This document shows positions 1,126-55,873 of a DNA stretch of 64,000 bases, piece by piece. Position numbers and translations under genes: made by a program. The notes beneath the pieces are model-generated. The model ran no database searches. It was not told the origin of the DNA and saw nothing but the letters and a program-made list of their open reading frames with translations. Positions within the stretch are counted from its first letter, which is position 1. The number at the start of each line of letters is the position of its first letter. Origin of the DNA: Spinacia oleracea (lineage: Eukaryota > Streptophyta > Magnoliopsida > Caryophyllales > Amaranthaceae); NCBI RefSeq assembly GCF_020520425.1, contig NC_079487.1, positions 133,136,385 through 133,200,384 of the forward strand. Reading direction: 5' to 3'.

Positions 1126-1304
1126 TTAGAAATAAATTGAAGTTTTGGTATGATTTTGGTTAAAAGAAGCGAAGTCGGCACTTTACAATTCCCCGTGATA
1201 AATTTCAAGGTCTCTTTAAACTAGGACCTCATAAAATCAGATGGAGTACGTAATATCATACAACAACTAGTGTGTGGCCCAAGCGTTGTTCTGGATTTTA
1301 GTTT

Positions 1305-1570
1305 TAATACAAGAATTTGTATCTTTAACGACAACCTAATTACGACGAGTCAAAAATCCCGTCGCAAAAGCCTTTTGCGACGGGGCTAGCAACCAAACAA
1401 TGACGGGAATAACCGTCGCAAATGTCTTTTACGACGGGTTTACGACGGGATTTCTATTAACGACGGCCCCTTTTATGACGGATTCACGACAGGAAATCCC
1501 GTCGTTAATCAACGATTATTGGCCTTTCGCAACGGAATTTCCCGTCGTTAATAGTACAATTTATGTAGTG
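1305..1570. mobile_element. CACTA-type non-autonomous foldback element (degraded 5' end)
   Basis: The element is rich in GACGGG/CCCGTC words. It ends TATGTAGTG, the complement of the CACTAC terminus typical of CACTA (En/Spm) elements. The left end is mutated to TAATACAAGAA. The body is closely related to the elements at 8835-9345 and 58573-58782. It truncates the leftmost copy of the GWD-upstream block, which stops near 1275. No 3-bp target duplication could be recognised here. Confidence 0.55.
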
Positions 1571-2160
1571 TACTATGCACATGGGTCTATTTAAAGACAT
1601 CACAAACTTCATATTTATTCCATGTGGGAGAATACTCCCACACTCATAAATAGAAGACTATTATCTAACAGTCATCTAATCTAATAATGGTACAAAATAC
1701 GCAAATTGAGCAAAGAAAACCAATCATGATCACCAAACAGATATATCATCAAAATAGGATCATAAAAAAGACAATAAAAGTGGACAAAATGTGAAAATTA
1801 CTCCTGAACAAAAGTGGACAAATTTACAAATTTTCTTCTAAAATACTCACAATCAAGTCGGCAACTTCAAAGGGAAGTTTAATGGTTTTTCTTTTGTTAA
1901 GTGTGCCTGCAGTGTGAGTATTGTAAACACATTAAATAATTGTTGGCATTTTAATTCTGGATATTAACCTCTCCCAATAGATTTCATTTATTTATTTATT
2001 TTTATTTCTTTTTGGTTCGAAAGAGTTACTTAATCCATTACTTTAGCAAAAAATTTACAAGGCATCATAGTTTTAGATAGTTTCCACTCTTGGTGGAGCA
2101 AAATTACAGCCATCCACTTCATGTGGCACAAAAAAACAGCCATCTATGGCGCAACCGGGA
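1571..2160. other. AT-rich intergenic DNA
   Basis: No gene is seen. A T-rich stretch at about 1981-2020 could be the complement of the poly(A) tail of the adjacent minus-strand LINE. This is an inference from position only. Confidence 0.4.
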
Positions 2161-2167
2161 TTAGAGT

Positions 2168-4173
2168 TTAACGTTTCCAAAAAAGAGATATCATTGTTTT
2201 CAGAGATACTATCAGCTTTGTTAGGAGGGGGTGTAGACTAACTCCTTGATGCGACAGATTCAGCAGCCTCCTTGCCTTCCTTGCTACGTGATCCACTTCC
2301 TTCATCGAATCTCGCCTTCTTGTTTGCAAAAACAGGCTTCTTTGGCTTCTTATGAGTTCCCTGCATTTTCCATATATGTTAGAAAGCCATGTTGTTGGAG
2401 TTGTTTCCTCGCCTATGCTATCAACTGCCACCTTACAATCTGAGATTACCACAGTATCCTCCCACTTATTGACAGCAGCCCAAGAGAGAGCTAGCAAGAT
2501 TGCTTGAGTTTCAGCAGTTGTAGCTGACACTGTTGTTGTGGTACCAGCAACTCCATCTATATACATGTTGTTCTTATCCCTGCAGATAATTGCATAGGAA
2601 GCAAGCAAAGAGGTAGAGCAAAAGGAAGCATCCACTTTAACTATATACCTTACAAAGGAAGGGCTTTGAACAATATGCATTGGTCTATTGGGGGTGGGCT
2701 TGGGTATTTCAGTTTTGGCAAACTCTTTGGTCAAGGAAATTGTTTGAGTGGCCCAGAATTCAATGGGCTTAGATTCTTTCTGGAAAACCCACATGTTTCT
2801 TCTCAACCACATTCTCCAAATACAGAAGATAAAAACAGTTGCTTGTTCTATATCTAACTCATCTACATTTTTACTTTCAGAAACATTTTCCATGAACCAA
2901 TTTTGAAAATCTGAGTTGGAGCATCTAACTTTGGGGATAAACTTGACTTTTGACCAAAACTCAACTGCCCTAGTGCAGCTGTAGAAGATATGTTCTTGAT
3001 CCTCTTAGACATTAGGACAAAATTTACATTGGGCATTGGGGATAATCTGTCTGCTAGCTAAATGGTATGCAGTGGGCAGCCTATCCCATATGCAGAGCTA
3101 AATAAACATTTTGATTTTTGGGGGACATCTAGCTTTCCATATTGCATTCCATTTTTTGCTTTGAACTGATCTGGGAAATTGGTTTTTCCAAATATGGTTG
3201 TAGGCTGTTTTTGAGTCAAAATGAAGGCCTTGGGATAATGTGCAAAAAGGGGTGTCACAACCAAAGCTAGTTAGAGGTATAGCCTGAATCCAGTTGGCTA
3301 AGTCAGTGGACAATAGAGCAGCTAGTTCATTCAATTTCCACTGGCCATTTTGGATAATTGAGTCAAGAGTTTGGTCCTCCTCACCTCTATTAAGGGGTCC
3401 AGCAATGATTGACCTCAGAGATCCTTTCCCAGTCCAGTTATCATTCCACAGATTAATCTGTTCCCATTTCCTATACACCACCCAGTTAGTTGGTTGTACA
3501 GGTTCCACCCTTTACCCACATTTTGCCATATATGGGACCCAGTCTTAAAGGAGGCAGGAAAAGCTCTATTGGACACATATTTTTATCTCACTAAGTTGAT
3601 GGCTAAATTATCAGCACTATTCATTTTCCAACAGAGTTTAGTCATGGCTACTTGGTTCATGATTAAAGCAGATCTGATTTCTAAACCACCTACTTCTTTT
3701 GCACTACACACTTTGTCCCAAGCAACAAGGTGGACTTTCCTATTTTCTGACTCATTACCCTACAGAAATCTTGCACAGGTTTGGTCAATCTCATGGAGAG
3801 TTTTCTTGGGGAGGGACAACACCTGCATGGAGTAGCTAGCAATGGCAGATAGGGATGATCTAATCAGCACTAACCTACCAGCTTTTGACAAGGATTTGGT
3901 TTTCCAAGAGTTCAGTTTTCCTTTTATATTTCTACAAATGTGGGCTAGTTGGGTTTGGGTTGGCCTCTTATCAGTGAGGGGAAAACCTAAGTAAGTTCCA
4001 AGATCTGGGCTTTGCTCTACTTGTAATGCTAGAGTGAAAAGATCCTTTTGATCACCAGGGGTGTGTTGGGAAAAGTATAGTTTGCTTTTTGAATTGTTCA
4101 TTTTCTGCCCTGAGCATTCCCAAAATTGGTCCAAAACCCTTTGCATGTTGGGAAAAGTATAGTTTGATTTCAT
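2168..4173 (-). pseudogene. 5'-truncated, frameshifted LINE (RT C-terminus, zf-RVT, RNase H)
   Basis: Three minus-strand open blocks lie in the order expected for the end of a plant L1-like ORF2. Block 4173-3760 carries the region after the reverse transcriptase palm, with LGTYLGFPL and KSLSKAGRLVLIRSSL. Block 3508-3098 carries the zf-RVT region, with the INLWNDNW motif. Block 2893-2168 carries an RNase H-like domain, with KVDASF, an ETQAILLAL acidic residue and SDCKVAVDSI. The blocks are in different frames with stops between them, and the endonuclease and the RT catalytic core are missing, so this is a dead copy. A 20-bp direct repeat (TTGGGAAAAGTATAGTTT within it) occurs near 4066 and near the truncation point at 4147. 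This suggests a microhomology or template-switch breakpoint. Confidence 0.85.
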
Positions 4174-5180
4174 TTATTTATTGAAAATATAAGTTTATTT
4201 AATGCTTATTTGCAGACCTAAGAGTTGTAAATATCATTTTCCATTAATTGATGTTGATAAAGAATTCACCCTTTTTTGCTTAAATGTACAATGCAAATTA
4301 CGTTTAATTATATTGATAATGTTTTTATTTTTATCCAAAATATGACATTAGAAAAGTGTGAGAGATTTAATGTCCCAAAGATTTTAATTAAATAAAATAA
4401 TCAATTACACGATTTTTGACATAATATTAAGGATATTTTTTATACAATATACTACGTATAAGGAAAGATTATAAATATAAATCTAACATGGGACATTAAA
4501 TCCCTCATTTTCTGCTCTAACAGTGTAAGCCAAACCCTGGCATGTATTATTCACAATCAATGAAATACATGCAACCAATTATAAAAAAAAAAAAAACTAA
4601 CATGGGACACTAAAAACAAAAGATGTAAAGAATAAAAAGGGATGGAGAGAGTATATATTAATTTAAAGCAATTTATTAGTTCCTCTATAAAACAAATTAA
4701 CCATATTTTAAGATGGTCTAATTGAAAAATTAATTATTTCGCATGATATAAGATGTACACAATGTGTTTGTGTAGCTTTATGAACTTCATGGATTTTTTT
4801 TCAATTTGTGGACAACATATACTTTTGTCAAATATTAGGCTCCAAAACATTCTAGAATTTCAATATTCAAAGTAGTACATGTTGTAACGTCTGAGCCTCA
4901 CACCAGTTAATACGTACTCCTAATTAATACTCCTAATTATATATAGCACGTACCATGCTTAATAGAGTTGGTTTCATTCTAAAGATTTTTTATTAGACAA
5001 CATTAAAGTATTGGTTAATTTACTTGTATGCAGATTGAGGTTTTGTTCTTCTCATCTTATTTTCACTTATTTCTGATTTAATGCATGTGTTAAGATAAGG
5101 GTTAATAAATTGATTTTGATAAGTTCAGGAAAAAAAAGTTTAATGAGTTTGATTACCTTTTCCTCGTGAAGAGTTTTTTG
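4174..5180. other. AT-rich intergenic DNA with a retroposed insert
   Basis: No gene is seen. The only structure identified is the short poly(A)-tailed insertion at 4501-4596, listed separately. Confidence 0.5.
4501..4596 (+). mobile_element. Short poly(A)-tailed retroposed fragment with 18-bp target duplication
   Basis: An insertion of 96 bp ends in about 14 A residues. It is flanked by direct repeats at 4483-4500 and 4597-4614, which begin CTAACATGGGACA and differ at one base. Poly(A) plus a long target-site duplication is the mark of LINE-machinery retroposition. The insert contains an AATGAAATACATGC-like 3' end, as in a SINE, a 5'-truncated LINE or an mRNA 3' end. The source is not recognised. 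Confidence 0.65.
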
Positions 5181-5383
5181 ATATTTTGTAGATTTGAAAT
5201 TGAACTAAATCTGATATATTGATTATATATAGGAATAGAACTAACATTGAGAAAGATTCATTAACAAATTTTATATATCAAAATTAAAAAACATAACCCT
5301 TAATTCTCACAATGAGAAAGATAACACCATTACTCTATGGGTAAAAGAAACTCTCCATGTCATGACACGGAGATTTATTATAC

Positions 5384-5389
5384 GTCGTA
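5384..5389 (-). terminator. Poly(A) signal of KTI1
   Basis: Minus-strand AATAAA about 135 nt after the KTI1 stop codon. The same signal, in the same flanking context, is found for KTI2 and KTI3. Confidence 0.55.
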
Positions 5390-5412
5390 AACATGAAATA
5401 ATTAAGAAAACA

Positions 5413-5447
5413 GGGGATTACCACCAACATGCTGGTGGTAGTCCCAA
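5413..5447 (-). other. 3' UTR hairpin of KTI1
   Basis: TACCACCA / TGGTGGTA stem (5419-5440), extended by GGGA / TCCC outer pairs, lying between the KTI1 stop and its poly(A) signal. A related hairpin is present in KTI3 (27637-27657) and absent from KTI2. Its function is unknown. Confidence 0.5.
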
Positions 5448-5522
5448 CCCTAGGTCAAACGAAAACTTAATTATGACTTCGAAGGGACGACGACAACCCT
5501 TAATACAGAGTACGTACGGTGG

Positions 5523-6209
5523 CTAGTAGCTACTACTAGTGGCAGTAGTAGTACTGGTGACCTTCTTGAATACAAAACCAAAGAAGGGAAGAGGATTATC
5601 AATTGGTACCAAACTTAACAACGACAAATCCCAAGGCCCAGGTAGAGTAGCATCCAACTGTTCACAATACTCAGAATCAGGATGACTCTTACCATTTCCA
5701 GCAGGAACAGGTACAAGGAAACAATACACTATTTTGTATGAATTAGTTCCAGGCAACGCTTCTTCGAGCTTGAACCAGTTGGTGAAGGTTTCAGCACCTG
5801 GGTTTCCGATTTCTCCATTAGTAGTTACATAGAATACTCCATCCCCATTTGAAGTCAGCTGCCACACTCCTTGGTTCCTGCACAAGCCGTTTAGACCAAA
5901 AGCAATGTTGACGTCTGAACTTAGTGTGATGTTTTTCTGTGAAGGGTCAGCTGGGTAGAAAGTTATGGGCCTGCCTTGGTTAGTCCAGCTCCTGTGTTGA
6001 CCTACGTATAAAGGGCAAATACCACTGAGGGGTTCAGCGGCTAAGCCACCACGGCTTGCTCCCCTGCTTCCCAAAGTTTGGACGTAGTATCTTGAGCCTG
6101 CTTCAACTGGGTTCCCATCCATGTCTAGGACTACCGAGTCCGCGGCTGTAACCGTGGGAGGAGAGAGAAAGAGGATGGTTGCAGCTAGAAGAAGAAGGTG
6201 GTTAGCCAT
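5523..6209 (-). CDS. Kunitz-type trypsin inhibitor family protein, copy 1
   Basis: An intronless 228-aa protein of the soybean trypsin inhibitor (Kunitz, I3) beta-trefoil family. Residues 1 to about 22 form a hydrophobic secretory signal. Residues 27-43 match the family signature (VLDMDGNPVEAG then YYV). Four cysteines occur in the usual order (GICPLY, GLCRNQ, VYCFLV, EYCEQL) and should make the two classical disulfides. The C-terminus keeps the FFGFVFKKV strand and ends in a Ser/Thr-rich tail. A canonical P1 Arg/Lys loop residue is not obvious, so real trypsin inhibition is uncertain. A miraculin-like or other storage/defence role is possible. It is the first of three minus-strand paralogues here (also 16607-17320 and 27671-28426). 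It has its own TATA box and an ACGT-core element. Confidence 0.93.
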   Translation of the reverse strand: MANHLLLLAATILFLSPPTVTAADSVVLDMDGNPVEAGSRYYVQTLGSRGASRGGLAAEPLSGICPLYVGQHRSWTNQGRPITFYPADPSQKNITLSSDVNIAFGLNGLCRNQGVWQLTSNGDGVFYVTTNGEIGNPGAETFTNWFKLEEALPGTNSYKIVYCFLVPVPAGNGKSHPDSEYCEQLDATLPGPWDLSLLSLVPIDNPLPFFGFVFKKVTSTTTATSSSY

Positions 6210-6298
6210 TGTATATTATTGTTAGGTTTATGTTTATGTTTATGTTTAGGGTTGGTAGTTTTTGAGTTGGTGCATGGAAATGGTTATGGTATGATGGC

Positions 6299-6328
6299 AT
6301 TTTATAATAGAACAACTGTGTACGTGTC
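6299..6328 (-). promoter_or_regulatory. KTI1 core promoter: TATA box and ABRE-like ACGTGTC
   Basis: The minus strand has TATTATAAAA at about 6301-6309, roughly 90 nt before the start codon. An ACGTGTC word (plus strand, 6322-6328) lies about 15 nt further out. The same pair, at nearly the same spacing, stands before KTI2 and KTI3. Confidence 0.6.
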
Positions 6329-6485
6329 TAGTAACATCATGGATTAAGAAGATATTGTTTAGGTTAATATTGAATGTCCTCCGCTCATTCACTTATTTCA
6401 TCATCGTAGCAACTAGCAAGGTACTTCCTCGGTGTCATACGGACTACTTGTATTATTTTTCAGATTTATTGTTCATATTTAATTA

Positions 6486-6765: not shown

Positions 6766-6767
6766 TA

Positions 6768-7652
6768 TTATTTATAATTATAGACGTTAATGTTCAAATT
6801 GTATCTTCCTCTTCCGTTGGCGCTCCGCTTCTGAAACCTTGGGCTCTTAATTTGCTCTGTCATCTGATTTGGGCTTTTCCAACTCAGGACGACCGAGTCA
6901 TTGTACCTAAAATTGGGCGATGGTCCTTTGTCAATGAAGCTAAAAATAATTTTAAATTAATGCATCTATTAAAGAAACGATAAGTTTTAGCTAAAAATGT
7001 ACTCCGTATACTCTAATCAAAATAACACGTGAAAAGAATGCAGCTTCAATAATTCATTCCTCCAAGATAAGGAAAGATTAAAGACCGCCAATGATGCGAC
7101 AAATCTTATAAATTGGCAGCCCCACTAATTTGTTTCTATTCGTTATCTTGAATTCATCCATGCTAATTCAGGACCATTCACTAATTTAATTAGCATGGTT
7201 ACACTGTACGGAGTACTATTGTTCATTATCTTCCATATATATATTCATCCAACCAAGCTAGCTAAAGAGTAAGGACCGCCATTGATGCGACTTCTCTTAC
7301 AAATTAATTGCCAGCTCCTCTTATTTGAGTACCATACATTCATTATCTTCTATCAGTTCATCATGGGTAGCTAACTATGGACCACCAACGCCATTCATTG
7401 ATGCAACTTTACTTACGGACTACTAGCTCCATATACTAGCTAATTAATTAATGTTAAGAGGACGCACAATTAATCATGTGTGTGATCAAAATTGTTCATC
7501 GGCATGCGTGTCCAGTCAAAACGGTGCGAGTATTAAGGGACGGAGGGAGTAGTACTTATTATCAACATATGAAAACTTTATTCAAAAGTTATCAAATTTG
7601 ATACTCACTCCGTTCCATTATAATCGTCACACTAATAAAAATATCTAGTACG
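6768..7652. other. Upstream DNA of KTI1, part of duplicated unit A
   Basis: No coding is seen. Stretches around 7070-7180 (containing GACCGCCAATGATGCGAC) are clearly related to 29540-29720 upstream of KTI3, which supports a shared duplicated spacer. Fragments of Stowaway ends occur near 7530 and 7609. Confidence 0.55.
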
Positions 7653-8480
7653 TAGTAATACGAAGTACTCCGTAGTGTGTTATAAGAAGAGTATGCACAT
7701 ACGTTTCATTGTTTTCTTTCGGACCGAACTGTTTAGGAATCACATGCACATGCACAAATCAGTAAGTAAACATCATTAATCTGAAATTCGAATAACAACC
7801 CATTGTTTTGTCGGTAACTTTTGTGTAAGACCGCCTTACCGGAAAGACCACTTTGGTTGCTTAACTAATTGGTTTAATTTCTTAACTAATTGGTTACATT
7901 ACTTAATTAATTGATTCAATTGCTTAACTAATTAATTTCTTTTTTTAACTAATTGATTTCAGTGCTTAACTTATTAGTTCAAGTGCTTAACTAATTGGTT
8001 ACATTGCTTAACTTATATGATACCAATATGGTCTTTTGTGTAAGACCGCCTTATAGAAAAGTTTGTATTGTTTTGTTACCTTAAACAAGATGCATTTAGT
8101 CATTTCTTAAAAGGAATTTAATTAGAAATAAATTGAAGTTTTGTTTGTTAGAAAAACTCAAGTATGACTTTGGTTAAAAGAAGTCGGCACTTTACAATTT
8201 CACGTGATAAGTTTCAAGGTCTCTTTAAACTACGACCTCATAAAATCCGATGGAGTAATCAGTAATATCATCCAACAACAACAATTTAAAATCTAGGGAT
8301 AAAACAAAACCAAAGAAGCAAAAGTTAAGCCGTCCGTACTAGTAGACCCAATATAAAGGTCCCCATTTTTGGATTTCTTTCTCCTCAACAATTTTCACGT
8401 GAGAACCTCAACACTACTTAACCTGGAGGCTGGAGCATTAATACCAACGGTGTGCAAATTCGCATTCTCGGTTTTCCTTT
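7653..8480. repeat. Duplicated segment, copy in unit A (GWD-upstream block at 8163-8480)
   Basis: Positions 7675-7811 plus 8067-8280 match 118-297 plus 1126-1265 at the left edge, apart from different insertions. From 8163 onward it also matches 18655-19130 and 32465-32850, the DNA directly upstream of GWD. Shared landmarks are AAGTCGGCAC at 8181, TAATATCATCCAA, and the G-box context CACGTGAGAA at 8396. No GWD exon follows it. Confidence 0.8.
7812..8066. mobile_element. MULE-like MITE with 10-bp target duplication and internal 20-bp tandem repeats
   Basis: A 255-bp insertion flanked by ATTGTTTTGT at 7802-7811 and 8067-8076. The paralogous segment at 249-258 has this word once, so the empty site is inside the window. 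The imperfect inverted ends (about 38 bp) contain GTAAGACCGCCTTA and AAAGACCA. The interior is a run of about eight degenerate copies of TGCTTAACTAATTGGTTACA. It is non-coding. A target duplication of 9-10 bp points to the Mutator superfamily. Confidence 0.7.
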
Positions 8481-8489
8481 AGAAATTTA

Positions 8490-8834
8490 CTAGATTAGGT
8501 CCCGTGCACGCACGGTTATTTGAAAATTATTAATTGACCATCTTTTTTAACTGAAATATTTATCCCTTAAATCTATTGCGTAATAACTAAATCTCGAACA
8601 TACTCATTTTATCATATAATATACAATTTTCGCTCTATTACGTATTATATATTTTATATGTTTAATATGATGATTTGACCAAATTAAATACTCCGTATTT
8701 GATATGCTTAATATGAATAAAGTATTGAGTAAGAATGTTTTTTATTATTGACATGACTATATGACTAAATATTATCAAAATTGTGTAATAATGTCATATT
8801 TAATAATCCTATAATTTTTCCAATGTATAACCAT
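8490..8834 (-). mobile_element. Helitron 3' end (minus orientation), 5' part decayed
   Basis: Read on the minus strand, hairpin CCGTGCGTGCACGG is followed by GACCTAAT and CTAG (8490-8493), then T. The adjoining 100 bp resemble Helitrons A and B (AAATATTTC context, GGTCAA). A matching 5' TC terminus is not found before the CACTA element at 8835. Confidence 0.55.
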
Positions 8835-9345
8835 CACTACAAGAATTTGTATCTTTAACGACAACCTAATTACGACGGGTCAAAAATTCCGTCGCAAAAG
8901 GCTTTTGCGACGGGGCTAACAACCAAACAATGACGGGAATAACCGTCGCAAATGTCTTTTACGACGGGTTTACGACGGATTTATGACGGGATTTTCTATT
9001 AACGACGCCCCCCTTTTATGACGGGTTCGCGACAGGAAATCCCGTAGTAATACGAAGTACTCCGTAGTGTGTTATAAGAAGAGTATGCACATACGTTTCA
9101 TTGTTTTCTTTCGGACCGAACAGTTTAGGAATCACATGCACATCCACAAATCAAAGGAGGACGTCGTTAATGGAAAAGGAGGACGTCGTTAATGGAAAAT
9201 CCCGTCGTTAACCCTTCCTAAAAGACATTTGCAACGGTTGTTCCCGTCTTTGTTTGGTTGTTACCCCCGTCGCAAAAGGCTTTTGCGACGGGATTTTTGA
9301 CCCGTCGTAATTAGGTTGTCGTTAAAGATACAAATTTTTGTAGTG
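8835..9345. mobile_element. CACTA-type foldback MITE carrying a captured neighbour sequence
   Basis: The ends are CACTACAAGAATTTG and TTTTTGTAGTG, flanked by CAT and TAT, a possible 3-bp duplication with one change. Arms of about 110 bp (8850-8960 and 9230-9335) are near-perfect inverted repeats full of GACGGG/CCCGTC. Between them, 9043-9152 is almost identical to the genomic segment at 7653-7763, about 1.4 kb to the left. It is followed by a tandemly doubled 22-bp block (9153-9196). It is non-coding. Confidence 0.75.
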
Positions 9346-16606: not shown

Positions 16607-17320
16607 TTAGCTACTACTGATAGTAGTTGTAGTAGTAGTGACCTTCTTGAATACAAAGCCAAAGAAGGGAAGAGGATTATCAATTGGTACCAAACTTAAC
16701 AACGAAAAATCCAAAGGCGGTACTGGTATAGTAGCATCCAACTGTTCACAGTACTCATCAGGACGATTCTTACCAGTTTCAGGAGGAGCAGGTACAGGAC
16801 CAGGTCCAGGTACAACGAAACAATACACTATCTTGTATGAATCAGGTTCAGATGACGCTTTCTCGATCTTGAACCAGTTGGTGAAGGTTTCAGCACCTGG
16901 GTTTCCGATAACTCCATTGGTAGTTACGTGGAATACTCCAAGCCCATTTGAACTTAACTGCCACACCCCTTGGTTTCTGCAGATGGGGCTTGGGTTGAAA
17001 GCAATGTTTACGTCTGAACTTTGTGTGATGTTTTTCTGTGAAGAGTCAGCTGGGTAGAAAGTTACTGGGCTGCCTTGTTGAGTCCAGCTCCTATGTTGAC
17101 CTACGTATAATGGGCAAGGGCCAGTGAGGCGTTCAGCGGTTAAGCCACCACGGCCTGCTCCCCTTGTTCCTAATGTGAGGACGTAGTATTGTGAGCCTGC
17201 TTCTAATGGGTTCCCATCCATGTCTAGGACTACAGAGTCCGCGGCTGTGACCGTGGGAGGAGAGAGAAAGAGGAGGGTTAGGATGATGGTTGCAGCTGGA
17301 AGAAGAAGGTGGTTAGCCAT
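16607..17320 (-). CDS. Kunitz-type trypsin inhibitor family protein, copy 2
   Basis: An intronless 237-aa paralogue of KTI1. The secretory signal is slightly longer (residues 1 to about 26). The Kunitz signature VLDMDGNPLEAG...YYV and four cysteines (GPCPLY, PICRNQ, VYCFVV, EYCEQL) are kept. Relative to KTI1 there is a proline-rich insertion (PGPGPVPAPPE) between the third and fourth cysteines, in the exposed loop of the second disulfide. The C-terminus is again FFGFVFKKV plus a Thr/Ser tail. Promoter and poly(A) context are conserved, but the 3' UTR hairpin of KTI1 and KTI3 is deleted. It is likely expressed in the same way as its neighbours. Inhibitory specificity cannot be read from the sequence. 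Confidence 0.93.
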   Translation of the reverse strand: MANHLLLPAATIILTLLFLSPPTVTAADSVVLDMDGNPLEAGSQYYVLTLGTRGAGRGGLTAERLTGPCPLYVGQHRSWTQQGSPVTFYPADSSQKNITQSSDVNIAFNPSPICRNQGVWQLSSNGLGVFHVTTNGVIGNPGAETFTNWFKIEKASSEPDSYKIVYCFVVPGPGPVPAPPETGKNRPDEYCEQLDATIPVPPLDFSLLSLVPIDNPLPFFGFVFKKVTTTTTTISSS

Positions 17321-17410: not shown

Positions 17411-18654
17411 TAGTAATGATGGAAATGAGTTGGATAAGAAGATATTTTTAGATTATTCAACGGTCTGTATTCATCTCCATTTTGTTTATTTTTTTTATTT
17501 TTTTTTTGCGTTGGTAAGTAAATAGTATTCCTAAACTCTAGACAAAAACAAGGCAAAATATGCCTTGAATTGAACAAAACTATACAACTTTCAAGTTTGT
17601 GAACCAACTTTTATCACTGCTAGCTAGTCTGCTAAACCTGGCCCTATTGTTACCTTTACTTGGGCCAATGCAATTCTTCAAACTCTTCATTGCCATTAAC
17701 AATTCCTGGCGAGCCCAAAAGCTAGATTAATATCGCGGGCTTTGGGCTGCACATGCATTTCTTGTTTTCTTAGGGCTCAACTTTTTAGGACTTGGAAGTA
17801 ATTCCAATCATGTGAGCCCAGTCTAGCTACGTAGTACTTTCACGGAGTACTTAAAAATAGAATTGCCTATGTAAAAATCTTTGGGATGTCTCCCTTACGT
17901 AGTACTTAAAAAATCTTTAGTGCCGAGGGAGACACCCAAAATTGAATTGGCGATGTAAGAAGGTAAAATCACTAATTGAGTTGGTTATGTATTACTTTTT
18001 AACCAAAACTTTCAATGATCCCATCATAAACAATGTTGAAGTTTGACAAGTAAATTTGCCAATTGAGATGGCGATGTGTATGGAAAAATAGTCAATTGAA
18101 ATAGAGATGTTGTACGGAAATTTCGTCTATTCAATTAACAATGTTGTATAGAATGAGTGAAAACTGAGCGTATTTCAAAAATTTTGACATCTTTAAGCAT
18201 TTTTGCCGGAAGTCGTTCAATAATAGGTCATGTTCAATAATAGTTCGAACCTTGTGACTTACTAACATAAGGAAAATGCCTTTAATCAAGTGACAATCAC
18301 TAAATATAGATTAGGATTAATAATGGAGATTAATAATTCGGTTATTTAGGTGATAGGCCCATGATGGATCTTGTTGTTGGTTATGTTTTTGGAGTAGTTA
18401 AGGTTTACTAGGTTATTTTAGTTCTACTAGGCTTGATTATCAAGTTATTAAAAACGTTATAGATAGACATGATGACCATATGATTAAATACAAGTTGAAT
18501 AAATCATTAATCCTATACAGTACTCCAAATCTTCATTCGTGCTCGTGTGTACTAAGTAGAAGAATCACGCATAGAATTCTGTCTCCAAATTAGTCCTTAT
18601 ATGCATGCGATCCTATTAGATGTAAGAAAAGAGTTTTCTATAATTCGGCTATTA
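17411..18654. other. Spacer of duplicated unit B
   Basis: It is non-coding. Positions 17675-17840 match 31870-32040 upstream of GWD (shared GGCTTTGGGCTGCACAT and TTTTTAGGACTTGGAAGT), which shows the spacer was duplicated together with the KTI gene. Confidence 0.65.
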
Positions 18655-19130
18655 AAAATTTGGTTAAAAGAAGTCGGCACCTTCATGATTCCACGTGATG
18701 AATTGGAATTGAGAACAATCACGTACTTTAAATAACTCCACCTGTCAAATTTTCTAACAAATAGCACTTTGTTTTTTCAATAACTCCAAGCTCTTCCTCA
18801 GAATTCCTCCCAAAAAAAGAAAAAACACGACGACCTCACAAAATCAGAAAATATCATCCAATAATACCAATTCAAAATCATAGAAAATAAAGAAAACAAA
18901 CACTCTTTTAGTCTTTTACTTATTTTATTTTGAAAAATCACTTCACTAAAAAAAAAAGTTAATCTGTATATACTCTGTAGTCCGTATTGGTTGGCCCAAT
19001 ACAAAGGCCCACATATTGGATTTCCTACCTCAACATTTCGCACGTGAGAATCTCACCGCACACTATTTGGAACAATAATATCAGAATTCAGAAGTGTGCA
19101 AATTTGCGTTCTATTATCCATGGATTAGAA
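18655..19130. repeat. GWD-upstream block, copy in unit B
   Basis: It is related to 32465-32850. Shared words, in order, are AAGTCGGCAC (18671), TTTTCAATAACTCCAAGCTC, GACCTCACAA, ATATCATCCAATAATA, GAAAATAAAGAAAAC-like DNA, and GCACGTGAGAA (CACGTG at 19041-19046). No GWD exon 1 follows. The MULE begins 180 bp to the right. Confidence 0.8.
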
Positions 19131-19308
19131 ATTTACTTCGGCTAATTTTACTTACGGGTTGCACGTTTATTGACCCTAAATTGTATCCATAATTTCCAGT
19201 ATCCACTTATTCGAGTGTTGGTTTCCTTTGATTCGGTTCGAATCGATTGGGAAATGGTTAGATCGATCAACTCGCACAGTTTCTTAAACATCCATTGGAA
19301 ATAAAATA

Positions 19309-20451: not shown

Positions 20452-20452
20452 G

Positions 20453-23400
20453 ATGGGTGATAATATTTTGTTAAAGTTTATGTTTGGAACTGGTGATGTT
20501 GATGTAGTTGTGGATGATATTGATAAGGTCATGCTGGTTGACTTGATAATTGATTTTTGCGATAATGCGGTTAAGCAAAAAAATGAGATACCTAAATTTC
20601 CTAGCTTTACGTACATGCATAAGAATGAACGCCTGCCTCTAAACACTGATAATGAATTAATGAAGATGTTTAGTAATTTGAATGGTAAGGATGTAATCAA
20701 CATATGGGTAAGTGATGAAGATAAGCCATCTCAGATTTTTAAAGTTGTTACGAGTTTAAGGACAACCAGAAATGCAAAAGAGCTTAAGGATGTGATGAGA
20801 GGGGTTGTAGAAAAATTTGGTATTACAGTGAATGATGGGGGTAACATTGGAGTTGAGAGGAATGATGATGTTGTTGCATTTAGTCCTCCAGAACTAACAT
20901 CTAGGAGAAGCCTAAGGTTGGAAGAGGAGATTCTGGTCATTCCAAACCTTAACTTTGGGCAAAATAAGGAACCTTACAACCCAGATGAGGTTGATTGGGA
21001 GGCAATGGATGCTTTGAATAGGTCCAATGATGACACATGGTTAGATTTTCAATTATCTCCAGTGAAAAGCAGAGGTGGGTGCAAGGCTAGAGGGGGAGGA
21101 AGAAGTAGAGGAAGAGGTGCGGGGAGAGGGGGAAGAAGGGGATCTGCTAGGGGGAGAGGGAGAGGTCCAACTAGAGGGTTTGAGTATTGGTTGGGGCTTG
21201 AAAATGAAACAAACATTGCAACTGACCCTATAGTTGAACATGAACCTGTTGTTGAAACTCATGAGTCAAATGAACAAGAAATTGGAATTAGGGTTGTAAG
21301 GAGAAGTCCAAGAAAACATAAACAACCTGTTATTCAACCTGTTATTACTCCTGAACTTGTAACTGAACCTCAACTTGAAACTGTCATAGAACCAAACCTA
21401 ATCTTAAGTAGAGGGTCATCCTTGTCTTCAAAAGCTTCCGTTCATAGGAAAAAGATACCAAAGACGACAGCTAGAAGGAAGGGGTTGCTTGTAAGTGGTA
21501 ATTCTGTTTCCGGAGGTGGAAATGAGCAACTGAACAGAAGTGTTACTATTAGTGTTGATGTTGATGATAATGCACTCTCAATTCGAAATAAGGATTTTGA
21601 TGGTGATGAAAATGACTCGGAATTCAATGTTAGTGGCAGTGACATTGGAGGTTCAGATTCTGATGAATTGAGTGCGGATGATGAAGATAATGTGGGGTTA
21701 GATGGTGATACCGGGATGGTTGTAGTAGATAATTATGACCCATATGTTGATGATGTATGGGTAGATGATGGAGTAGATGATGATGGGGATGGGAATTACT
21801 TTGCAAAGTTGTATAGAAATGGGGAAATGTTTGAAGAGAAAGAGAATGTGAAGATTGAATTGAAACCTTGGCATCTTTTTTGTGATAAAAACCATTTGAG
21901 GGATGTAGTCAGAGATTATTGTATCCAACGTGGTTTTTCTGTAGTGGTTGATAGAGCCAACAATTCCATTTACACCGTCTATTGTTCAGCCGAGGGGTGT
22001 GAGTGGAGGCTACATGCTTCCAGATTAGCAGATGGGTTCACTTGGGCTATCAAGTCAATCAAGAATCCAGAGCATACTTGCCTAGGTTTGGAGATCCGAA
22101 ACCCAATGGTCACAGCAAAATGGGCTAGCAGAGTGTTGTTGGAAGACATTAGGGCAAACAATGATATTTCTGCAAAGTCATTGAACTTGTTGTTGTGGAA
22201 CAAGTTTAAGGTTAAAATGGCTACAAGTACATTGTACAGAGTGAGAGCAAGGGCACTAATTGAAATACATGGAGGGTTTGATGAATCATATGCTCATTTG
22301 CCTGGTTACTGTGAGATGATAAGGAAAACTAACCCTCAATCAGTTGCTTCTTGTGTGTGGAATCCTGCTAATCATGTTGACAGACCATTGGCTTTTGTCA
22401 CAATATTTATTTCATTTAAGGCCTGTGTAGATGGACTAAGGCAGGGCGTTAGAGGTTTTGTTGGTGTTGATGGAGCTCATTTAAAAGGGAATTATGGGGG
22501 TGTATTGTTATCTGCAGTGGCATTAGATGGGAACAATGAGTTGTTCCCATTTGCATGGGGAATAGTGTCAAATGAAGATGCAGACACTTGGTGTTTTTTT
22601 GTGCATCATTTGAGAGATTTGCTGAGATCAACTGGAAGAGGAGATGAGTGGTGTGTTATCTCAGATAGACATCAGGTTAGTTTGCTGCATTTCATTCCAT
22701 TCCATTATATTTTGTGTTTTAAAATTTCATTTGAATATTGAATGTTGCTAACTTGGGATGGTGTATGAGCAGGGTATTGAAGTTGCATTTAACAAGTTGT
22801 GGCCAGAAGTAGATAGGAGATATTGTACCAAACATTTGTCCGGCAATTGGAAGAAAGCATTTCCTGGTCCACTCATGCTTTCTCTATTTTGGAAAGCAAC
22901 GGGGGCATACTCAACTTTCACATTCAGAAAAGCCATGGAGCAAATAGATAAGGTGGGAAAGGGAGGAAGGTTGTGGCTGGCCAAACTTGGTAATCAGGCT
23001 AGATGGAGTAAGCATAAGTTCAATGTTGCTACAAAGTGTGATGTAAACACATCAAATTTTGTTGAGAGTTTTAATGCAACGCTTGGTATTGACAGATGTA
23101 GACCCGTGCTTACACTGTTAGAAGGTAAATTCACACGTCGTTAAACTGTTTAATATTGTAATATTGTACAGTCTGTGTGTTAGTTTCTTAATTGTGTTAA
23201 ACTATTAAATTGTCTGTTTTAGGTATTAGGAGGAATACTATGGTGAGATTAGCTACTAGAAGACAGATGTGTGAAGAGTGGACAAGGAATGACGTATGTC
23301 CAAATATTGTGAAAAGGGTTCAAAAGCTTTGTCATGATTCTAGGACTTGTCATTCATTTCTTTGTTCTGAAGGTGAGTTTGAGATATTTGAAGGTAAATC

Positions 23401-26518: not shown

Positions 26519-26529
26519 TTTGGTTTGAT

Positions 26530-27406: not shown

Positions 27407-27537
27407 TTTTCTTTAAAAAAAAAATATAGCCCCAACTCTCATAAGAAACGAGAGATAAAACCATTACTCTATAGCTCAATAGGCAGAAAAACCCAATAGT
27501 TGGGTAAAATTACTCTCCTGGCCTGTCATAATGGAGA

Positions 27538-27543
27538 TTTATT
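27538..27543 (-). terminator. Poly(A) signal of KTI3
   Basis: Minus-strand AATAAA about 130 nt after the stop, in the same context as in KTI1 and KTI2. Confidence 0.55.
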
Positions 27544-27636
27544 GTAAACGTACATGAATTAAAAGTTACTCCATAATTAAGTCCATAATATATATATATA
27601 TGGAGTACAAAAAATAAATTAACAAAGTAAGAGATT

Positions 27637-27657
27637 ACCACCAACCAGGTTGGTGGT
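27637..27657 (-). other. 3' UTR hairpin of KTI3
   Basis: A perfect 10-bp stem ACCACCAACC / GGTTGGTGGT with a single-base loop, between the stop codon and the poly(A) signal. It is homologous in position to the KTI1 hairpin and absent in KTI2. Confidence 0.6.
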
Positions 27658-27670
27658 TGCGACTAGCTAG

Positions 27671-28426
27671 CTAGTAGCTGGAGTAGCCAATAGTAGCAGT
27701 AGGAGCAGGCACAGGCGCAGTAGGAGAAGGCGGCGTAGTAGGAGGAGGCGCAATAGGAGAAGGTGGCGGAGTACTAGTGACCTTCTTGAATACAAACCCA
27801 AAGAAGGGGAGAGGTTTATCAATTGGTACAAGACTTAACATCGCCAAATCTGAAGGGCCAGGAATAGTAGCATCCAACTGTTCACAATACTCATAAGGAC
27901 TCATACGAGAATACCATGGAGCAGGTACGAGGAAACAATAAACAATCTTGTATGATTCAGGCCCAAACGCATGTTCGATCTTGAACCAATTAGTGAAGGT
28001 TTCAGCACCTGGGTTTCCGATAACTCCATTGGTAGTTACATAGGGTACACCAGAGAAACTATAACCCAGCTGCCACACCCCTAGGTTTCTGCATATGGGG
28101 TTTAGCCCGAAAGCAATGTTGACGTCTGAACTTTGTGTGATGTATTTTTGTGAAGGGTTAGCGGGGAAGAAAGTTACGGGGCTGCCTTGTTGAGTCCAGC
28201 TCCTATGTTGACCTACGTATAAAGGGCAAAGGCCACCTAAGGGTGCAGCGGTTAAGCCGCCACGGCCTGCTCCCCTGGTTCCCCTAGTGAGGACGTAGTA
28301 TTGTGAGCCTGCTTCTACTGGGTTCCCATCGATGTCTAGGACTACCGAGTCCGCGGCCGTGGGAGGAGAGAGAAAGAAGAGGGTGAGGAGGATGGTTGCA
28401 GCTGCAAGAAGAAGGTGGTGAGCCAT
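27671..28426 (-). CDS. Kunitz-type trypsin inhibitor family protein, copy 3, with proline-rich tail
   Basis: An intronless 251-aa paralogue. Signal peptide 1 to about 23; Kunitz signature VLDIDGNPVEAG...YYV; four cysteines (GLCPLY, PICRNL, VYCFLV, EYCEQL); FFGFVFKKV near residue 211. Unlike copies 1 and 2, it then continues for about 35 residues of Pro/Ala/Thr/Ser (for example TPPPSPIAPPP and TTPPSPTAPVPAP) before ending YSSY. Such a tail resembles hydroxyproline-rich or arabinogalactan-type segments and could be O-glycosylated or wall-associated (inference). The loop between cysteines 3 and 4 is shorter than in KTI2. It is transcribed divergently from GWD, whose start lies 4.7 kb to the right across several MITEs. 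Confidence 0.92.
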   Translation of the reverse strand: MAHHLLLAAATILLTLFFLSPPTAADSVVLDIDGNPVEAGSQYYVLTRGTRGAGRGGLTAAPLGGLCPLYVGQHRSWTQQGSPVTFFPANPSQKYITQSSDVNIAFGLNPICRNLGVWQLGYSFSGVPYVTTNGVIGNPGAETFTNWFKIEHAFGPESYKIVYCFLVPAPWYSRMSPYEYCEQLDATIPGPSDLAMLSLVPIDKPLPFFGFVFKKVTSTPPPSPIAPPPTTPPSPTAPVPAPTATIGYSSY

Positions 28427-28496
28427 TATGGTTATATTTGGTTGATTGTTCTACTTGAGTTGGTGCATGGAAATTAAAGATTAGAGTAGGAAGAGA

Positions 28497-28529
28497 TTTT
28501 ATAGTATGACTAGAAGAAGGGTACGTGTC
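28497..28529 (-). promoter_or_regulatory. KTI3 core promoter: TATA-like box and ABRE-like element
   Basis: Minus-strand CATACTATAAAATC at about 28495-28508, roughly 75 nt before the start, and ACGTGTC (plus strand, 28523-28529). It is followed by a second GTGTCTAGTAAT, shared with KTI1 and KTI2 at their first copy. Confidence 0.55.
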
Positions 28530-30018
28530 ATGTGTCTAGTAATATTATGGAAATGATGTCAACAGAAAAATAAAATAAAATAAAAATCTTTTAATGAGTA
28601 TATTATTGTATATGTGATGTTAACGAGTACCTGTCCAATAAAATTTATTTGTTAATGATCGAGTAATAGGTTAATAAGATATTTTTAGGTTGATTATTGA
28701 ATGTCGACGACTCGACGCCCTCCGCTAGCTCATCCATCATTTACCCTTCACATTTATGATTTACCACTAGAGAGGTTAATGGTTAAAGTAGTGTATTATT
28801 AGCTGCAGTAAAATATGTAATACTACATTCGTTACACAACTTTTACCATTATTGAAGAAAAAATATATAGTCAAGTGAGTTATTGTTGAATTCGTATCAT
28901 TATGAAGATTCCAAATATTAACTTTTTATAATATTTACTATACTCAATTAGAGATACTAATGATCACAGAAGCAGGTTAGAGTACGTGAGAAAATAAATG
29001 TTACATGTGTTGTGAAACAAAGGCCGATAATAGTAAAAGTTAACATACATTATGCAACGGTTTATGGGAGTACCTTGTTCGTTCCTTAAAATTTCAATAC
29101 GTACTTGCCTACTCTATATTTGGCTACTCCGTATTTGATATGAGATTTAATTTTCTAAATAATTGTAACCCGTACTTGTCTATTCGAGTATGTAGGTTAA
29201 TCATCTCGATCAACGAACTTATGTTTCTTTCCTATTGTACTCGTTAATACTTAATTTTGTTGAACTTAACTTTTATTTTTTTCTCACTGAATACGAAGTA
29301 TTAATTAAGGGGGAAAAGAACATAATTAATGTAAGGGTAACTTTTAACTGTATGCTAATAGTTTGCGCCACATAATAATGTTATTTTAATATATAGGGAC
29401 ACGTAAAAGCTTTTGTTAAGAAGAACAATGAAAGTTTTAAATTAAAAATGTGGGATTAGCAGTGTGGTTAGTACTAAGTCTCTATCCTGCATATATTTAT
29501 ATATATAATCAAGAAAACATATGAAAGACATGCAGCTCAGCTTCAATAATTCCTCCCAAGTCCCAACATAAGGACCACCAATGACGCGACTTCTCTTATA
29601 CGGACTTACGGAGTAATGAATTTCCAGTCCCACTAATTTGCTTCTACTCGTTATCTACCATTCATTCATCATCCAACCTGATTTAATTAAGGACTACCAA
29701 CGCCAATAATGCGACTTCTCTTATAAATGATCGGGTATTTGATTTCAGATATGATCTGATATGAATTTATTTGATCTGATCTAATTTAATCTGATTTTTT
29801 AAATTTAACATTGGAAATAATGTTATGATTATTTTTTTTGTTTGTTAAATGATTAATTTATTCATTCAACTCAGGGCTAAAACCAACAAAATGCAACCAA
29901 ACTCATAAACACTAAGCAACACACTAGTAAGACAACTAACCCTTGTAACCTTGTAGGAAGTCTTCCCTTAACTAGTACGTAGTACAAACTATGGAATATA
30001 GTTCTTTAACACAAACTA
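28530..30018. other. Spacer of duplicated unit C
   Basis: It is non-coding. Positions 29540-29720 are related to 7070-7420 in unit A (AAGGACCACCAATGACGCGA context). A GATCTGAT-rich stretch lies at 29750-29800. Confidence 0.5.
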
Positions 30019-30026
30019 GTACAAAT

Positions 30027-30862
30027 TAGAGGTGGCAATAGATCGGGTTTGGATCGGGGGAGGCTCAATCCGCATCCATCCATGACATTTCATCCGTCTT
30101 CCAACTCATCCATCATCCGTGAAATTCTTCATTCACATCCGATCCATTCATTATCCACGAGTGATTCGGGTGGATAGGGTTAAAATCGGGTGATATATAT
30201 TTGAAGCTATATAAAAACAACTTAAAGTGACACATAACATGACTATTTTTCTTTTAATATTTTGTGTTACGCTTATGTCTACTACTCCCTCCGTATTTTT
30301 TTAAGGGATACACTTGCCTTTTCCGGCCGTATTTATTTAAGAGATACACTTGCTATTTTTAGTAACTTATCAACCCTACCATCTAATTAAATAATACATC
30401 TAATATACCCTATCACCCACCATCCTATTAAACAAATAATTTCATAAACCCACCCACCCTCCACCCACCAAAATGACTTGGTCCCCACATGTTTAATTAT
30501 TAAAATATCTATCCAACCCCACTTGCTTTATTATTTTATTTTATTCAATTATTTTTCTTAATACCCGTGCCCGACCAAGTGTATCTCTTAAAAAAATACG
30601 GAGGGAGTATAATTTTATTTACAATAAATAAATATATTATGAAAGTAAATGATGACAAATTAAATCATACAACTAGTGTAATAAGTTGATGGATCGGGTG
30701 ATAGATCGGGTGGTGGCCGGGTTGGATGCACCTTCATCCATATCCGACCCACTTTTCATCCGATCCATCCATCATTTATCAACCATCCACTTATTTTCGG
30801 GTTTTCGTCCATATAACTTGGATCAGGTCATCTATCGGATTCAGTTGAAATTGCCAGCTCTA
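30027..30862. mobile_element. Non-autonomous hAT element with nested Stowaway
   Basis: The ends TAGAGGTGGCAAT and ATTGCCAGCTCTA are inverted repeats (12 of 13 match). The element is flanked by a perfect 8-bp duplication GTACAAAT (30019-30026 and 30863-30870), diagnostic of hAT transposition. The interior is rich in ATCGGGT/CATCCG words and non-coding. A Stowaway MITE sits inside at 30285-30607. Confidence 0.88.
30285..30607. mobile_element. Stowaway MITE nested in the hAT element
   Basis: A 323-bp element with ends CTCCCTCCGTATTTTTT and AAAAAATACGGAGGGAG, flanked by TA. The inverted ends run more than 30 bp and include GATACACTTG / CAAGTGTATC. It is non-coding. Confidence 0.88.
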
Positions 30863-31154
30863 GTACAAATCCTAGACTGAATTTTCCTAACAAGATTAGC
30901 AACACCCAATTTACCGATATTCATGTTCTTAGTATAATAAAGGTGATCGAGTAGGTGAACCACCTAATTAATCATGCAACAATACTTCGCAGATAATTGT
31001 ACGTAGAGGTTAGTTATGATTATTAATAATAGGTTAAATGCTTAATTTTTATAATCACTATTAACATATTTTTTTGTCCATAATTTGCTTGGATCACAAG
31101 TTTTTATTTATTTATTTGATAGAATTGGATTACAAGTTTAGATTGTGGTCCTAA

Positions 31155-31546
31155 GAACATTAGCAATGGTGTGTTTCTAGTTCATCACAACACCATCTAT
31201 TATCTTTGCGGGTAAACTCACCATTGCAGATGGTCCATAGTTTCCCCATGAGGACATGAGGTTATAGTGATTGCTGGATCACTAACCGCCTCGGTCCATG
31301 AGCCAACATCCAACGGAATTTGTAAGCTTGTCACTCACTTGCATGAATTTTTTGCCAACTCCTCCCACTTTTTGAGCTCATATAATTGATAAAAGTAGTA
31401 GAGAGAATTGTGAAGTTGTTCACCATTGTAGAAAATTATAAGAGGTGGGCCATAATAGTAACTCATGATAGTTAAACTGGAAAGAGATACATTTATTATA
31501 TTCCGTATTTAACTGTTCATAGACAAGCTCATCATTGCTCATGCTC
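31155..31546. mobile_element. Harbinger/Tourist-like MITE
   Basis: A 392-bp element with ends GAACATTAGCAATGGTG and CATCATTGCTCATGCTC (about 13 of 17 inverted match), flanked by TAA (31152-31154 and 31547-31549). A 3-bp TWA target fits PIF/Harbinger. It is non-coding. Confidence 0.65.
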
Positions 31547-31558
31547 TAATGTACGAAG

Positions 31559-31849
31559 TAGATCTGATCAAAAGGCGGGTCGGGCCGGACCAAGGGCATA
31601 AAAATCTGGCTATTATGTCGGGTCGGGCCAAACTTTGGGCCAACTTTTTGTGCCCAAAACCCGCTATTTCGGGCAAAAAATAGCGTGCTTTTCGGGCCAT
31701 TTTCGGACCGACCCAAATTTATAACTAAAATTGTTATTTTACATTGCCCAAAGCCCGCATTTTTTAAAAATTCGGGTCGAGCCGCATCGGGCCAAAAAAG
31801 GCTGTCCAAAACCCGGTAATTCGGGCCGGACCGGTGTTGATCAGCTCTA
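31559..31849. mobile_element. hAT-type MITE
   Basis: A 291-bp element with ends TAGATCTGATCAA and TTGATCAGCTCTA and a perfect 8-bp duplication GTACGAAG (31551-31558 and 31850-31857). The interior is rich in CGGGCC/GGCCCG words. It is non-coding. Confidence 0.88.
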
Positions 31850-31865
31850 GTACGAAGTAGAAGTA

Positions 31866-32850
31866 TAATTTTTCAAACTCCTCATTTCCATTAACAATTC
31901 ACGGCGGACCCAAAAACTAGATTAATATCACAGGCTTTGGGCTGCACATCCATTTGTTGATTTCTTTGGGCTGACTTTTTTAGGACTTGGAAGTCTTTTC
32001 ACACTCATGTGAGCCCAATCTACCTACGTAGTGCCGTATAACATAACTTTAAAATATTGTAAATAAAACCAAGAAAACCCAAAGGCCCAAATGGGTGAAC
32101 TTTAATTTAAATACACAAATTTCCCTCAAAAAAAAAAAAAAAAAAAACTAATATAGCCAGTGGATAAATAGCTATAAAAATGTTAGAGGGTGCATTGTAC
32201 AAAAGTGTACCTTAGATGTGTTGCATAACTTTTTCTCTCTTATCTGATTTGAGCGGGTAGACTTATTAGAGATCTATTGCGATAGTCAAAGGACCAATTC
32301 AACCAAAATTTAAGCTAATACGGAGTAGTTGAAGCCCCAAGACTAATTTTTATATTCTATAATGCGATATCTCTTCTACAACTTTGGGTTATTATCTTGT
32401 TATGCCAAACTAATATTTGATGTTATAAAAGCACTTCTAAAAAAACACAAATTAAAATCTAAATCTTATTTAAAGAAGTCGGCACACTTTAGGTATCATG
32501 ATAAAATAGAATTGACAACGACCCATTATCAAAATTTCTTACCACAAAACCACTCGAGTTTTCAATAACTCCAAGCTCTTTAAACTACGACCTCACAAGA
32601 TGTGATAATATCATCCAATAATAACAACCTAAAATCCTAGGAAAAGAAAAAAGAAAATCAAAGAAAACACTTATGGTTATTTATTTTTATAAAAATTCAC
32701 TTCTCTAAAAAAAGTTTAAAAAATCTAAAGTTGGTACTCCCAACGCAGGGGTCCCACATTTCGGATCCCCCGCCTTCATAATTCGCACGTGAGAACCTTA
32801 CCACCCTCTACGTGGAGCATCAGCACCTGCCACGTGTCCTCCTTGTCACG
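31866..32850. repeat. GWD upstream region, source of the duplicated block
   Basis: Positions 31870-32040 match 17675-17840. Positions 32465-32850 match blocks at 8163-8480 and 18655-19130, and partly 1145-1275. A run of 19 A residues lies near 32130. It lies directly before the GWD promoter and leader. Confidence 0.75.
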
Positions 32851-55868: not shown

Positions 55869-55873
55869 GTTAA

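What the first reader, a model, noticed from the sequence alone, without database searches (positions are those of the whole stretch)
1145..32850. KTI array grew as units that carry the GWD upstream region without GWD itself
Seen: DNA directly upstream of GWD (32465-32850) recurs at 18655-19130 and 8163-8480, and truncated at 1145-1275. It keeps the same order of words (AAGTCGGCAC, ATCATCCAA, CACGTGAGAA). Each full copy lies upstream of a minus-strand KTI gene, and spacer segments match too (17675-17840 with 31870-32040; 7070-7180 with 29540-29640). Inference: tandem duplication had one breakpoint inside the divergent KTI/GWD promoter region. This left orphan GWD-type promoter fragments, with a G-box, at 8.4 and 19.0 kb that point rightward into non-GWD DNA. 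These could drive non-coding transcripts or act as extra regulatory DNA for the KTI genes.
Basis: partly seen in the sequence, partly recalled or inferred. Interest (0 to 1): 0.75.

Follow-up and report, generated by a model that had tools for sequence, protein, structure and literature searches.

The report
Inhibitor gene array carrying promoter fragments
In what appears to be the spinach genome, a row of seven protease-inhibitor genes grew by tandem duplication of a unit that ends inside the upstream region of the neighbouring starch-degradation gene, so copies of that upstream region, without its start site, lie through the row, probably as harmless passengers.

Summary
The ~380 bp upstream of the alpha-glucan water dikinase gene (GWD; 32456-32832) recurs at 18651-19100, 8161-8468 and, cut short, 1149-1267, behind minus-strand Kunitz inhibitor (KTI) genes. 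Left of the window, in the same genome (894 Mb, fitting spinach), the array continues: seven KTI copies (a-g) and six blocks, one behind each of b-g, none found behind a. Units are colinear (KTI, spacer A, spacer B, block). Homology to GWD stops about 50 bp before its TATA box; GWD 5'UTR or exon copies were not found. At readable boundaries DNA of an old dispersed repeat follows the block, so one ancestral junction is likely but less secure than I first wrote. Block divergence (K80 f-g 0.34-0.44) is not below KTI synonymous divergence (0.316), and GWD's own copy is not better conserved than the orphans. Four short words are clustered only modestly beyond chance (simulation p 0.007-0.08). Blocks b and e were homogenised recently (99.7%) although their KTI genes are old. 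Most likely passengers; regulatory use is untested.

The parts
5523..6209 (-). KTI-e, intact Kunitz inhibitor gene
   Evidence: ORF, Pfam Kunitz_legume 7.8e-31
16607..17320 (-). KTI-f, intact Kunitz inhibitor gene
   Evidence: Pfam 8.9e-36
27671..28426 (-). KTI-g, intact Kunitz inhibitor gene next to GWD
   Evidence: Pfam 3.5e-34
32456..32832 (+). GWD upstream block (copy g)
   Evidence: aligned with the five orphan copies; ends ~50 bp before the TATA-type box
18651..19100 (+). orphan block f
   Evidence: 68% to the GWD copy, E 5e-17; genome search with it lists only itself and the GWD copy
8161..8468 (+). orphan block e (internally deleted; 99.7% identical to block b outside the window)
1149..1267 (+). 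orphan block d, truncated shortly before an inserted repeat that begins near 1308
17672..17835 (+). spacer B of unit f
   Evidence: 85% to 31867-32032; three places listed in the genome, all in this array
31867..32032 (+). spacer B of unit g
7014..7304 (+). spacer A of unit e
   Evidence: matches spacer A of units b, c, d and g
29489..29728 (+). spacer A of unit g
19094..19299 (+). junction DNA right of orphan block f: piece of an old dispersed repeat, also present right of block c outside the window
   Evidence: 19156-19299 matches reg 63312-63450 (68.5%); relatives on C1 and C4
32885..32891 (+). TATAAAA, presumed TATA box of GWD, beyond the end of homology with the orphans
33160..47908 (+). 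GWD gene from the first ATG to the last exon-like frame seen here (limits approximate)
7540..9048 (+). stretch recently exchanged with unit b (reg 49768-51012)
   Evidence: 94-98% identity, profile

Best explanation
An ancient tandem duplication copied a stretch running from behind (3' of) a KTI gene, through the KTI gene and its upstream spacers, into the GWD upstream region; exchanges between the repeated units then multiplied it. Each new unit carried a KTI gene and the upstream half of the GWD promoter but, as far as can be seen, not the GWD core promoter or coding sequence. The orphan blocks therefore point at the 3' side of the next KTI gene. They have since diverged at about the neutral rate, lost pieces, been hit by transposons and been homogenised among units b-e. 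Shown: block homology, restriction to this locus at the sensitivity used, colinearity, no GWD core or exon copy found, discordant block and KTI histories. Inferred: that the block was GWD's before it was copied, that all units descend from one junction, unequal exchange as mechanism, and lack of present function.
For: Six block places, all in this array; seven same-strand KTI copies, of which five intact genes and part of a form one clade apart from a second KTI cluster 6 Mb away where no block was listed; colinear KTI-A-B-block order; the word GTGTGCAAATT(C/T)GC occurs four times in 154 kb, each at the end of a block or at the b/c boundary, and similar repeat DNA follows at b/c, c/d and f/g; GWD 32833-33410 found once; block K80 f-g 0.335-0.443 against KTI dS 0.316; branch lengths GWD 0.217, f 0.118, e 0.224.
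Against: No outgroup, so the GWD origin of the block rests on position. No block found behind KTI-a. The junction is an old dispersed repeat: f/g scores 55-58 bits to places on C4 and C1 and c/d 74 bits to one on C2, but only 47 bits to each other, so sharing by descent is not proven, and the end of homology may be a repeat edge instead of the original breakpoint. The nearest left-flank match of KTI-a to unit d (81% over 59 bp) also matches C4. Word clustering: permutation p 0.0025-0.096 for e/f/g, c/e/f/g and b/c/e/f/g, 0.0005-0.0115 for f-g; simulation 0.007-0.08. Between c and e the block (0.080) is less diverged than the KTI 3' flank (0.182) or KTI dS (0.295); I read that as homogenisation, but constraint would look the same.
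Confidence: 0.66

Rival explanations
1. The orphan blocks are kept as distal enhancers of the KTI genes: G-box and other words brought from the GWD promoter tie inhibitor expression to the signals that drive GWD.
For: Words AAAGAAGTCGGCA, ACGACCTCA, AATATCATCCAA and CACGTGAGAA are unchanged in e, f and g; clustering p 0.007-0.08 by simulation; a block stands behind each of b-g; c-e block divergence 0.080 is below their 3' flank and synonymous divergence.
Against: Between f and GWD the block diverges as much as or more than KTI synonymous sites and more than the KTI proximal promoter (0.237); d is truncated and has no CACGTG; distance to the KTI ATG varies from 1.3 to 6.5 kb; none behind a; the CCAAT word is present in f and GWD only (CCAAC in b, c, e).
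Confidence: 0.13
2. The block was originally KTI-array DNA; the array's last unit came to lie in front of GWD and supplied part of its promoter.
For: Every block copy adjoins a KTI gene; GWD's own copy is no better conserved than orphans; no outgroup was tested.
Against: No block was listed near the 15 KTI matches outside the array; the homology ends close to the GWD TATA-type box, which would be a coincidence; needs an extra event.
Confidence: 0.14
3. Units were joined more than once: recombination between copies of the old dispersed repeat, and not one ancestral breakpoint in the GWD promoter, set the unit ends.
For: Repeat DNA stands right of the block at b/c, c/d and f/g; f/g and c/d pieces match other genome places better than each other.
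Against: The block ends at the same point in b, e, f and the b/c remnant (tail word), which separate events would hardly give.
Confidence: 0.05
4. The orphans are active promoters for rightward non-coding RNAs.
For: They point rightward and b, c, e, f keep two CACGTG each.
Against: No GWD TATA, 5'UTR or exon found with them; a MULE-type frame lies downstream of f at 20453-22741; no Rfam match at gathering threshold in the window.
Confidence: 0.02

Closest known systems
Tandemly arrayed plant gene families, Kunitz inhibitors among them
   Same: Same-strand copies, colinear spacers, broken copies in the array, partial homogenisation. Gene duplication in the KTI family is treated e.g. for Populus yunnanensis, PMC11720115 (search listing and start of abstract only).
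   Different: The unit reaches into a neighbour's promoter, so fragments of an unrelated gene's upstream region are multiplied with the family.
Tandem duplications that shuffle regulatory elements at the breakpoint (Rogers et al. 2017, Drosophila yakuba, PMC5460883; abstract and passages read)
   Same: Duplication breakpoints place 5' regulatory DNA of one gene beside new sequence.
   Different: There, a captured promoter with UTR can drive transcription of previously silent DNA; here no core promoter was found in the copies and no transcript data exist.

Membership tests
Tandem array by unequal exchange | Same orientation, adjacent copies of one clade | tested here: met
   7 of 7 KTI copies on the minus strand; five intact genes and the first part of a form one clade, 100/100; d not in that tree
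Tandem array by unequal exchange | Colinear spacers between copies | tested here: met
   some spacers are missing in some units
Tandem array by unequal exchange | One shared unit junction | tested here: inconclusive
   alike at b/c, c/d and f/g, but made of a dispersed repeat
Tandem array by unequal exchange | Unduplicated state in an outgroup | not testable with these tools
   no plant relatives are held
Functional promoter (orphan blocks) | TATA-type core element near the end of the block | tested here: not met
   none in c and f, TATATAT ~180 bp away in b and e; GWD TATAAAA at +53; d not scanned; TATA-less promoters exist (recalled)
Functional promoter (orphan blocks) | Transcription start | not testable with these tools
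   no expression data
Conserved cis-regulatory module | Slower evolution than neutral sites | tested here: inconclusive
   not met for f-GWD (K80 0.335-0.443 vs dS 0.316); c-e 0.080 vs dS 0.295, with homogenisation as likely cause
Conserved cis-regulatory module | Clustered invariant motifs | tested here: inconclusive
   p 0.007-0.08 against simulation, 0.0005-0.096 by permutation
Dispersed repeat (the block) | Copies elsewhere in the genome | tested here: not met
   at E<=0.001
Kunitz inhibitor (PF00197) | Kunitz_legume domain above cut-off | tested here: met
   3 of 3 window genes
Alpha-glucan water dikinase | PPDK_N domain plus GWD-specific DUF7067 | tested here: met
   2 exon frames PPDK_N, 3 DUF7067, of 5 submitted

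The most novel reading that the evidence does not exclude
A starch-turnover gene's upstream module was captured and multiplied by a defence-gene array, its G-box and other words were kept while the rest decayed, and it now gives KTI genes some of GWD's daily or stress timing.
Probability: 0.07. Interest if true: 0.6.

Novelty: new member of a known kind. Interest (0 to 1): 0.3.

Why it matters
It is a readable case in which the end of a duplicated unit lies within a neighbour's upstream region and can be followed through six copies. It shows how an expanding gene family can multiply a neighbour's regulatory DNA without its core promoter or coding part, and gives a natural series of decaying copies of different ages. 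It also warns promoter annotation: motif scans could call these blocks GWD-like promoters although no core promoter was found with them.

Tried and rejected
Block as dispersed transposon: rejected at the sensitivity of whole-genome searches. RNA gene: no Rfam match in the window at gathering threshold. Captured GWD exon: 32833-33410 found once in the genome and only chance-level matches in the region to its left. Slower evolution of GWD's own copy: not found. Direction of growth from a KTI tree: no inner fork supported except d+e at 93/93 in the codon tree. Block behind KTI-a: only chance-level matches up to E 1. Literature: no paper describing GWD and KTI as neighbours was seen (13 papers; 0 papers; 9 papers), titles and abstract starts only; one search listed 12 of 188. 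Most subscription journals are not in that library.

Limits of the counts: one search missed copy d, one search missed copy f, one search listed only f and GWD; the six places come together. Block distances depend on the alignment, e.g. e-f 0.390 vs 0.538. Spacer B is 0.156 on the BLAST-delimited 164 columns but 0.297 on a wider 200. dS values carry no error bars. KTI-a was left out of the dS table and codon tree, KTI-d out of the protein trees, and two of six chosen outgroup loci (L024, L026) were dropped because my frame picker returned short frames. Simulations: 150 runs per indel rate, three of six copies.

The GWD ATG is 33160, not 33161.
Full report
Where it is. A search of the window's own genome places the window at C1:133136385-133200384 of an 894,210,420-base assembly in 242 contigs. 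The published spinach Monoe-Viroflay assembly is ~894.3 Mb in 307 contigs, anchored to six chromosomes (PMC8668906, passages read), so the species is probably Spinacia oleracea; this is inferred from size. I fetched 70 kb to the left and 20 kb to the right and joined them with the window (154 kb, no N). 'reg' positions below are window positions plus 70,000.

What is there. Seven Kunitz inhibitor copies lie on the minus strand (reg kb): a 39.3-40.0 (frameshifted), b 42.9-43.6, c 57.1-57.8, d 66.9-67.4 (front part missing), e 75.5-76.2, f 86.6-87.3, g 97.7-98.4; b, c, e, f and g are open frames. Pfam names the three window genes Kunitz_legume. A genome search with KTI-f gave 23 matches: 8 in this array (a counts twice), 9 in a second cluster at C1:127.25-127.32 Mb with 38-50% identity, and 6 scattered. 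The array genes tested form one clade apart from four genes of that cluster. GWD follows from window 33160; five exon frames match PPDK_N or DUF7067 'Alpha-glucan water dikinase'.

The block. The GWD upstream block is repeated behind b (reg 50.12-50.44), c (63.04-63.30), d (71.15-71.27, truncated), e, f, and g, which is GWD's own. None is seen behind a. Whole-genome searches with the GWD, e and f copies list only these places. Each search is a lower bound: the first missed d, the second f, and the third all but f and GWD.

The unit. Unit-by-unit comparison gives the order KTI, spacer A, spacer B, block: A and B both in g; A in b, c, d, e; B in f and a. Spacer B is listed three times in the genome, all in this array.

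The junction. Right of the block, the f/g boundary (reg 89156-89299) matches the c/d boundary (63312-63450; 68.5%, E 1.2e-6), and the b/c boundary (54909-55061) matches c/d (80-88%). The word GTGTGCAAATT(C/T)GC stands at the end of blocks b, e and f and at the b/c boundary and nowhere else in the 154 kb on the + strand. At d and e other insertions follow. However, this DNA is an old, diverged dispersed repeat: the f/g piece has relatives on C4 and C1 (55-58 bits), the c/d piece on C2 and C3 (74 and 61 bits), while f/g and c/d share 47 bits. One ancestral junction carrying such a repeat is the simplest reading, since the block ends at the same point in each, but separate joins through the repeat are not excluded. 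On the left, the flank of KTI-a matches the unit's left part at reg 36169-36474 and, out of order, 35366-35633; a nearer 59-bp match at 36046 is also found on C4 and so counts for little. The left breakpoint is therefore known only roughly, some 3 kb or more behind KTI-a.

The right end. GWD and the orphans align to about window 32832, then part. GWD has TATAAAA at 32885; within 300 bp beyond the end of homology c and f have no TATA-type word, b and e only TATATAT about 180 bp away. GWD 32833-33410, with the presumed core promoter, 5' leader and first exon, is found once in the genome. So the orphans are upstream fragments with no core promoter recognised.

Age and constraint. KTI synonymous divergence is 0.316 for f-g, 0.220 e-f, 0.143 d-e and 0.356-0.582 for b against the others. 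At a recalled plant rate near 6.5e-9 per site per year, f-g is very roughly 24 million years. Block K80 f-g is 0.443 (0.367-0.541) on all aligned columns and 0.335 on the 220 columns shared by b, c, e, f and g. In f-g the KTI proximal promoter is 0.237 (0.145-0.366) and spacer B 0.156 (0.098-0.226) on its 164 BLAST-delimited columns, 0.297 on a wider 200. Branch lengths are 0.217 for GWD, 0.118 for f and 0.224 for e; the GWD branch was shorter than f in 2.4% of bootstraps, or 11.6% with c in place of e. So there is no overall constraint between f and GWD, and none special to GWD. Results the other way: c-e block 0.080 is below c-e 3' flank 0.182, spacer A 0.128 and KTI dS 0.295, though spacer A2 is 0.061 and the stretch before the block 0.283. 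Four words of 9-13 bases are unchanged in e, f and g. Column shuffles for e/f/g give p 0.069 (longest run) and 0.0025 (sum of squares), for f-g alone 0.0115 and 0.0005; neutral sequences simulated and re-aligned give 0.06-0.08 (longest run), 0.007-0.027 (runs of 9 or more) and 0.007-0.013 (sum of squares). CACGTG occurs 10 times in the window, six of them in blocks e, f and g (the one at 32831 overlaps the block's end); d has none. The names G-box and CCAAT are recalled.

Homogenisation. Blocks b, c, d, e differ by only 0.003-0.10 and form one clade, while KTI-b has the longest branch of the KTI genes compared. b and e are 98.4% identical over reg 50024-51012 / 78067-79048; in the profile the rows from b 49800 to 50928 hold 11 mismatches in 1,122 aligned bases, with about 265 bases extra in e; the next row has 8 in 93. 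Their KTI genes have dS 0.412. Since the tract lies in register, gene conversion or unequal exchange is more likely than transposition; this is inference.

How it works. A tandem duplication that reached into the GWD upstream region, then exchange between units, carried the fragment along. The fragments now point at the 3' side of the next KTI gene or at inserted transposons (a MULE-type frame at 20453-22741). I judge them passengers (about 0.66 for the whole account), with enhancer use of the words possible (about 0.13). If the array has a conserved KTI control element, spacer B is an equally good or better candidate.

Known or new. Kunitz families with duplicated genes are described (listing), and tandem duplications are known to shuffle regulatory DNA at breakpoints (PMC5460883). 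Searches combining GWD with Kunitz, Kunitz with spinach and tandem, and Kunitz with beet and gene cluster showed no description of this locus in titles and abstract starts. It is a new instance of a known process.

Noticed in passing
window 17672-17835 and 31867-32032; reg 41066-41128 (C1:133107450-133107512): Spacer B: a 165-bp non-coding stretch listed only three times in the genome, all in this array; f-g divergence 0.156 on its core columns (0.297 on a wider stretch) against KTI dS 0.316. Contains GGGCTTTGGGCT. A candidate KTI control element.
   Followed up: partly
window 7540-9048 and C1:133116152-133117396: Recent in-register exchange between units b and e (94-99% identity) that includes the orphan block, while the KTI genes of the two units have dS 0.41.
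   Followed up: partly
window 8489-8515: Block e is followed by a sequence resembling an inverted Helitron end (recalled); the same insert stands at the same place after block b.
   Followed up: no
window 8838-9345 and 1308-1570: Foldback elements with CACTA-type ends (recalled); the one in unit e holds a 111-bp copy (98%) of window 7651-7761, and the one in unit d begins about 40 bp after the truncated block d.
   Followed up: no
window 49584-50435 and 55020-55871: An 852-bp direct repeat at 99.5% identity, possibly the LTRs of a young retrotransposon right of GWD; a copia-type gag frame lies outside it at 48236-49066 on the minus strand.
   Followed up: no
window 19094-19299; L012:3297-3541: Old dispersed repeat at the unit junctions, with relatives at 71-75% identity on C1, C2, C3 and C4.
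   Followed up: partly
reg 41264-41744 and 60673-61481 (left of the window): Tandem repeats of about 75-bp units, in opposite orientation at two places within the array.
   Followed up: no
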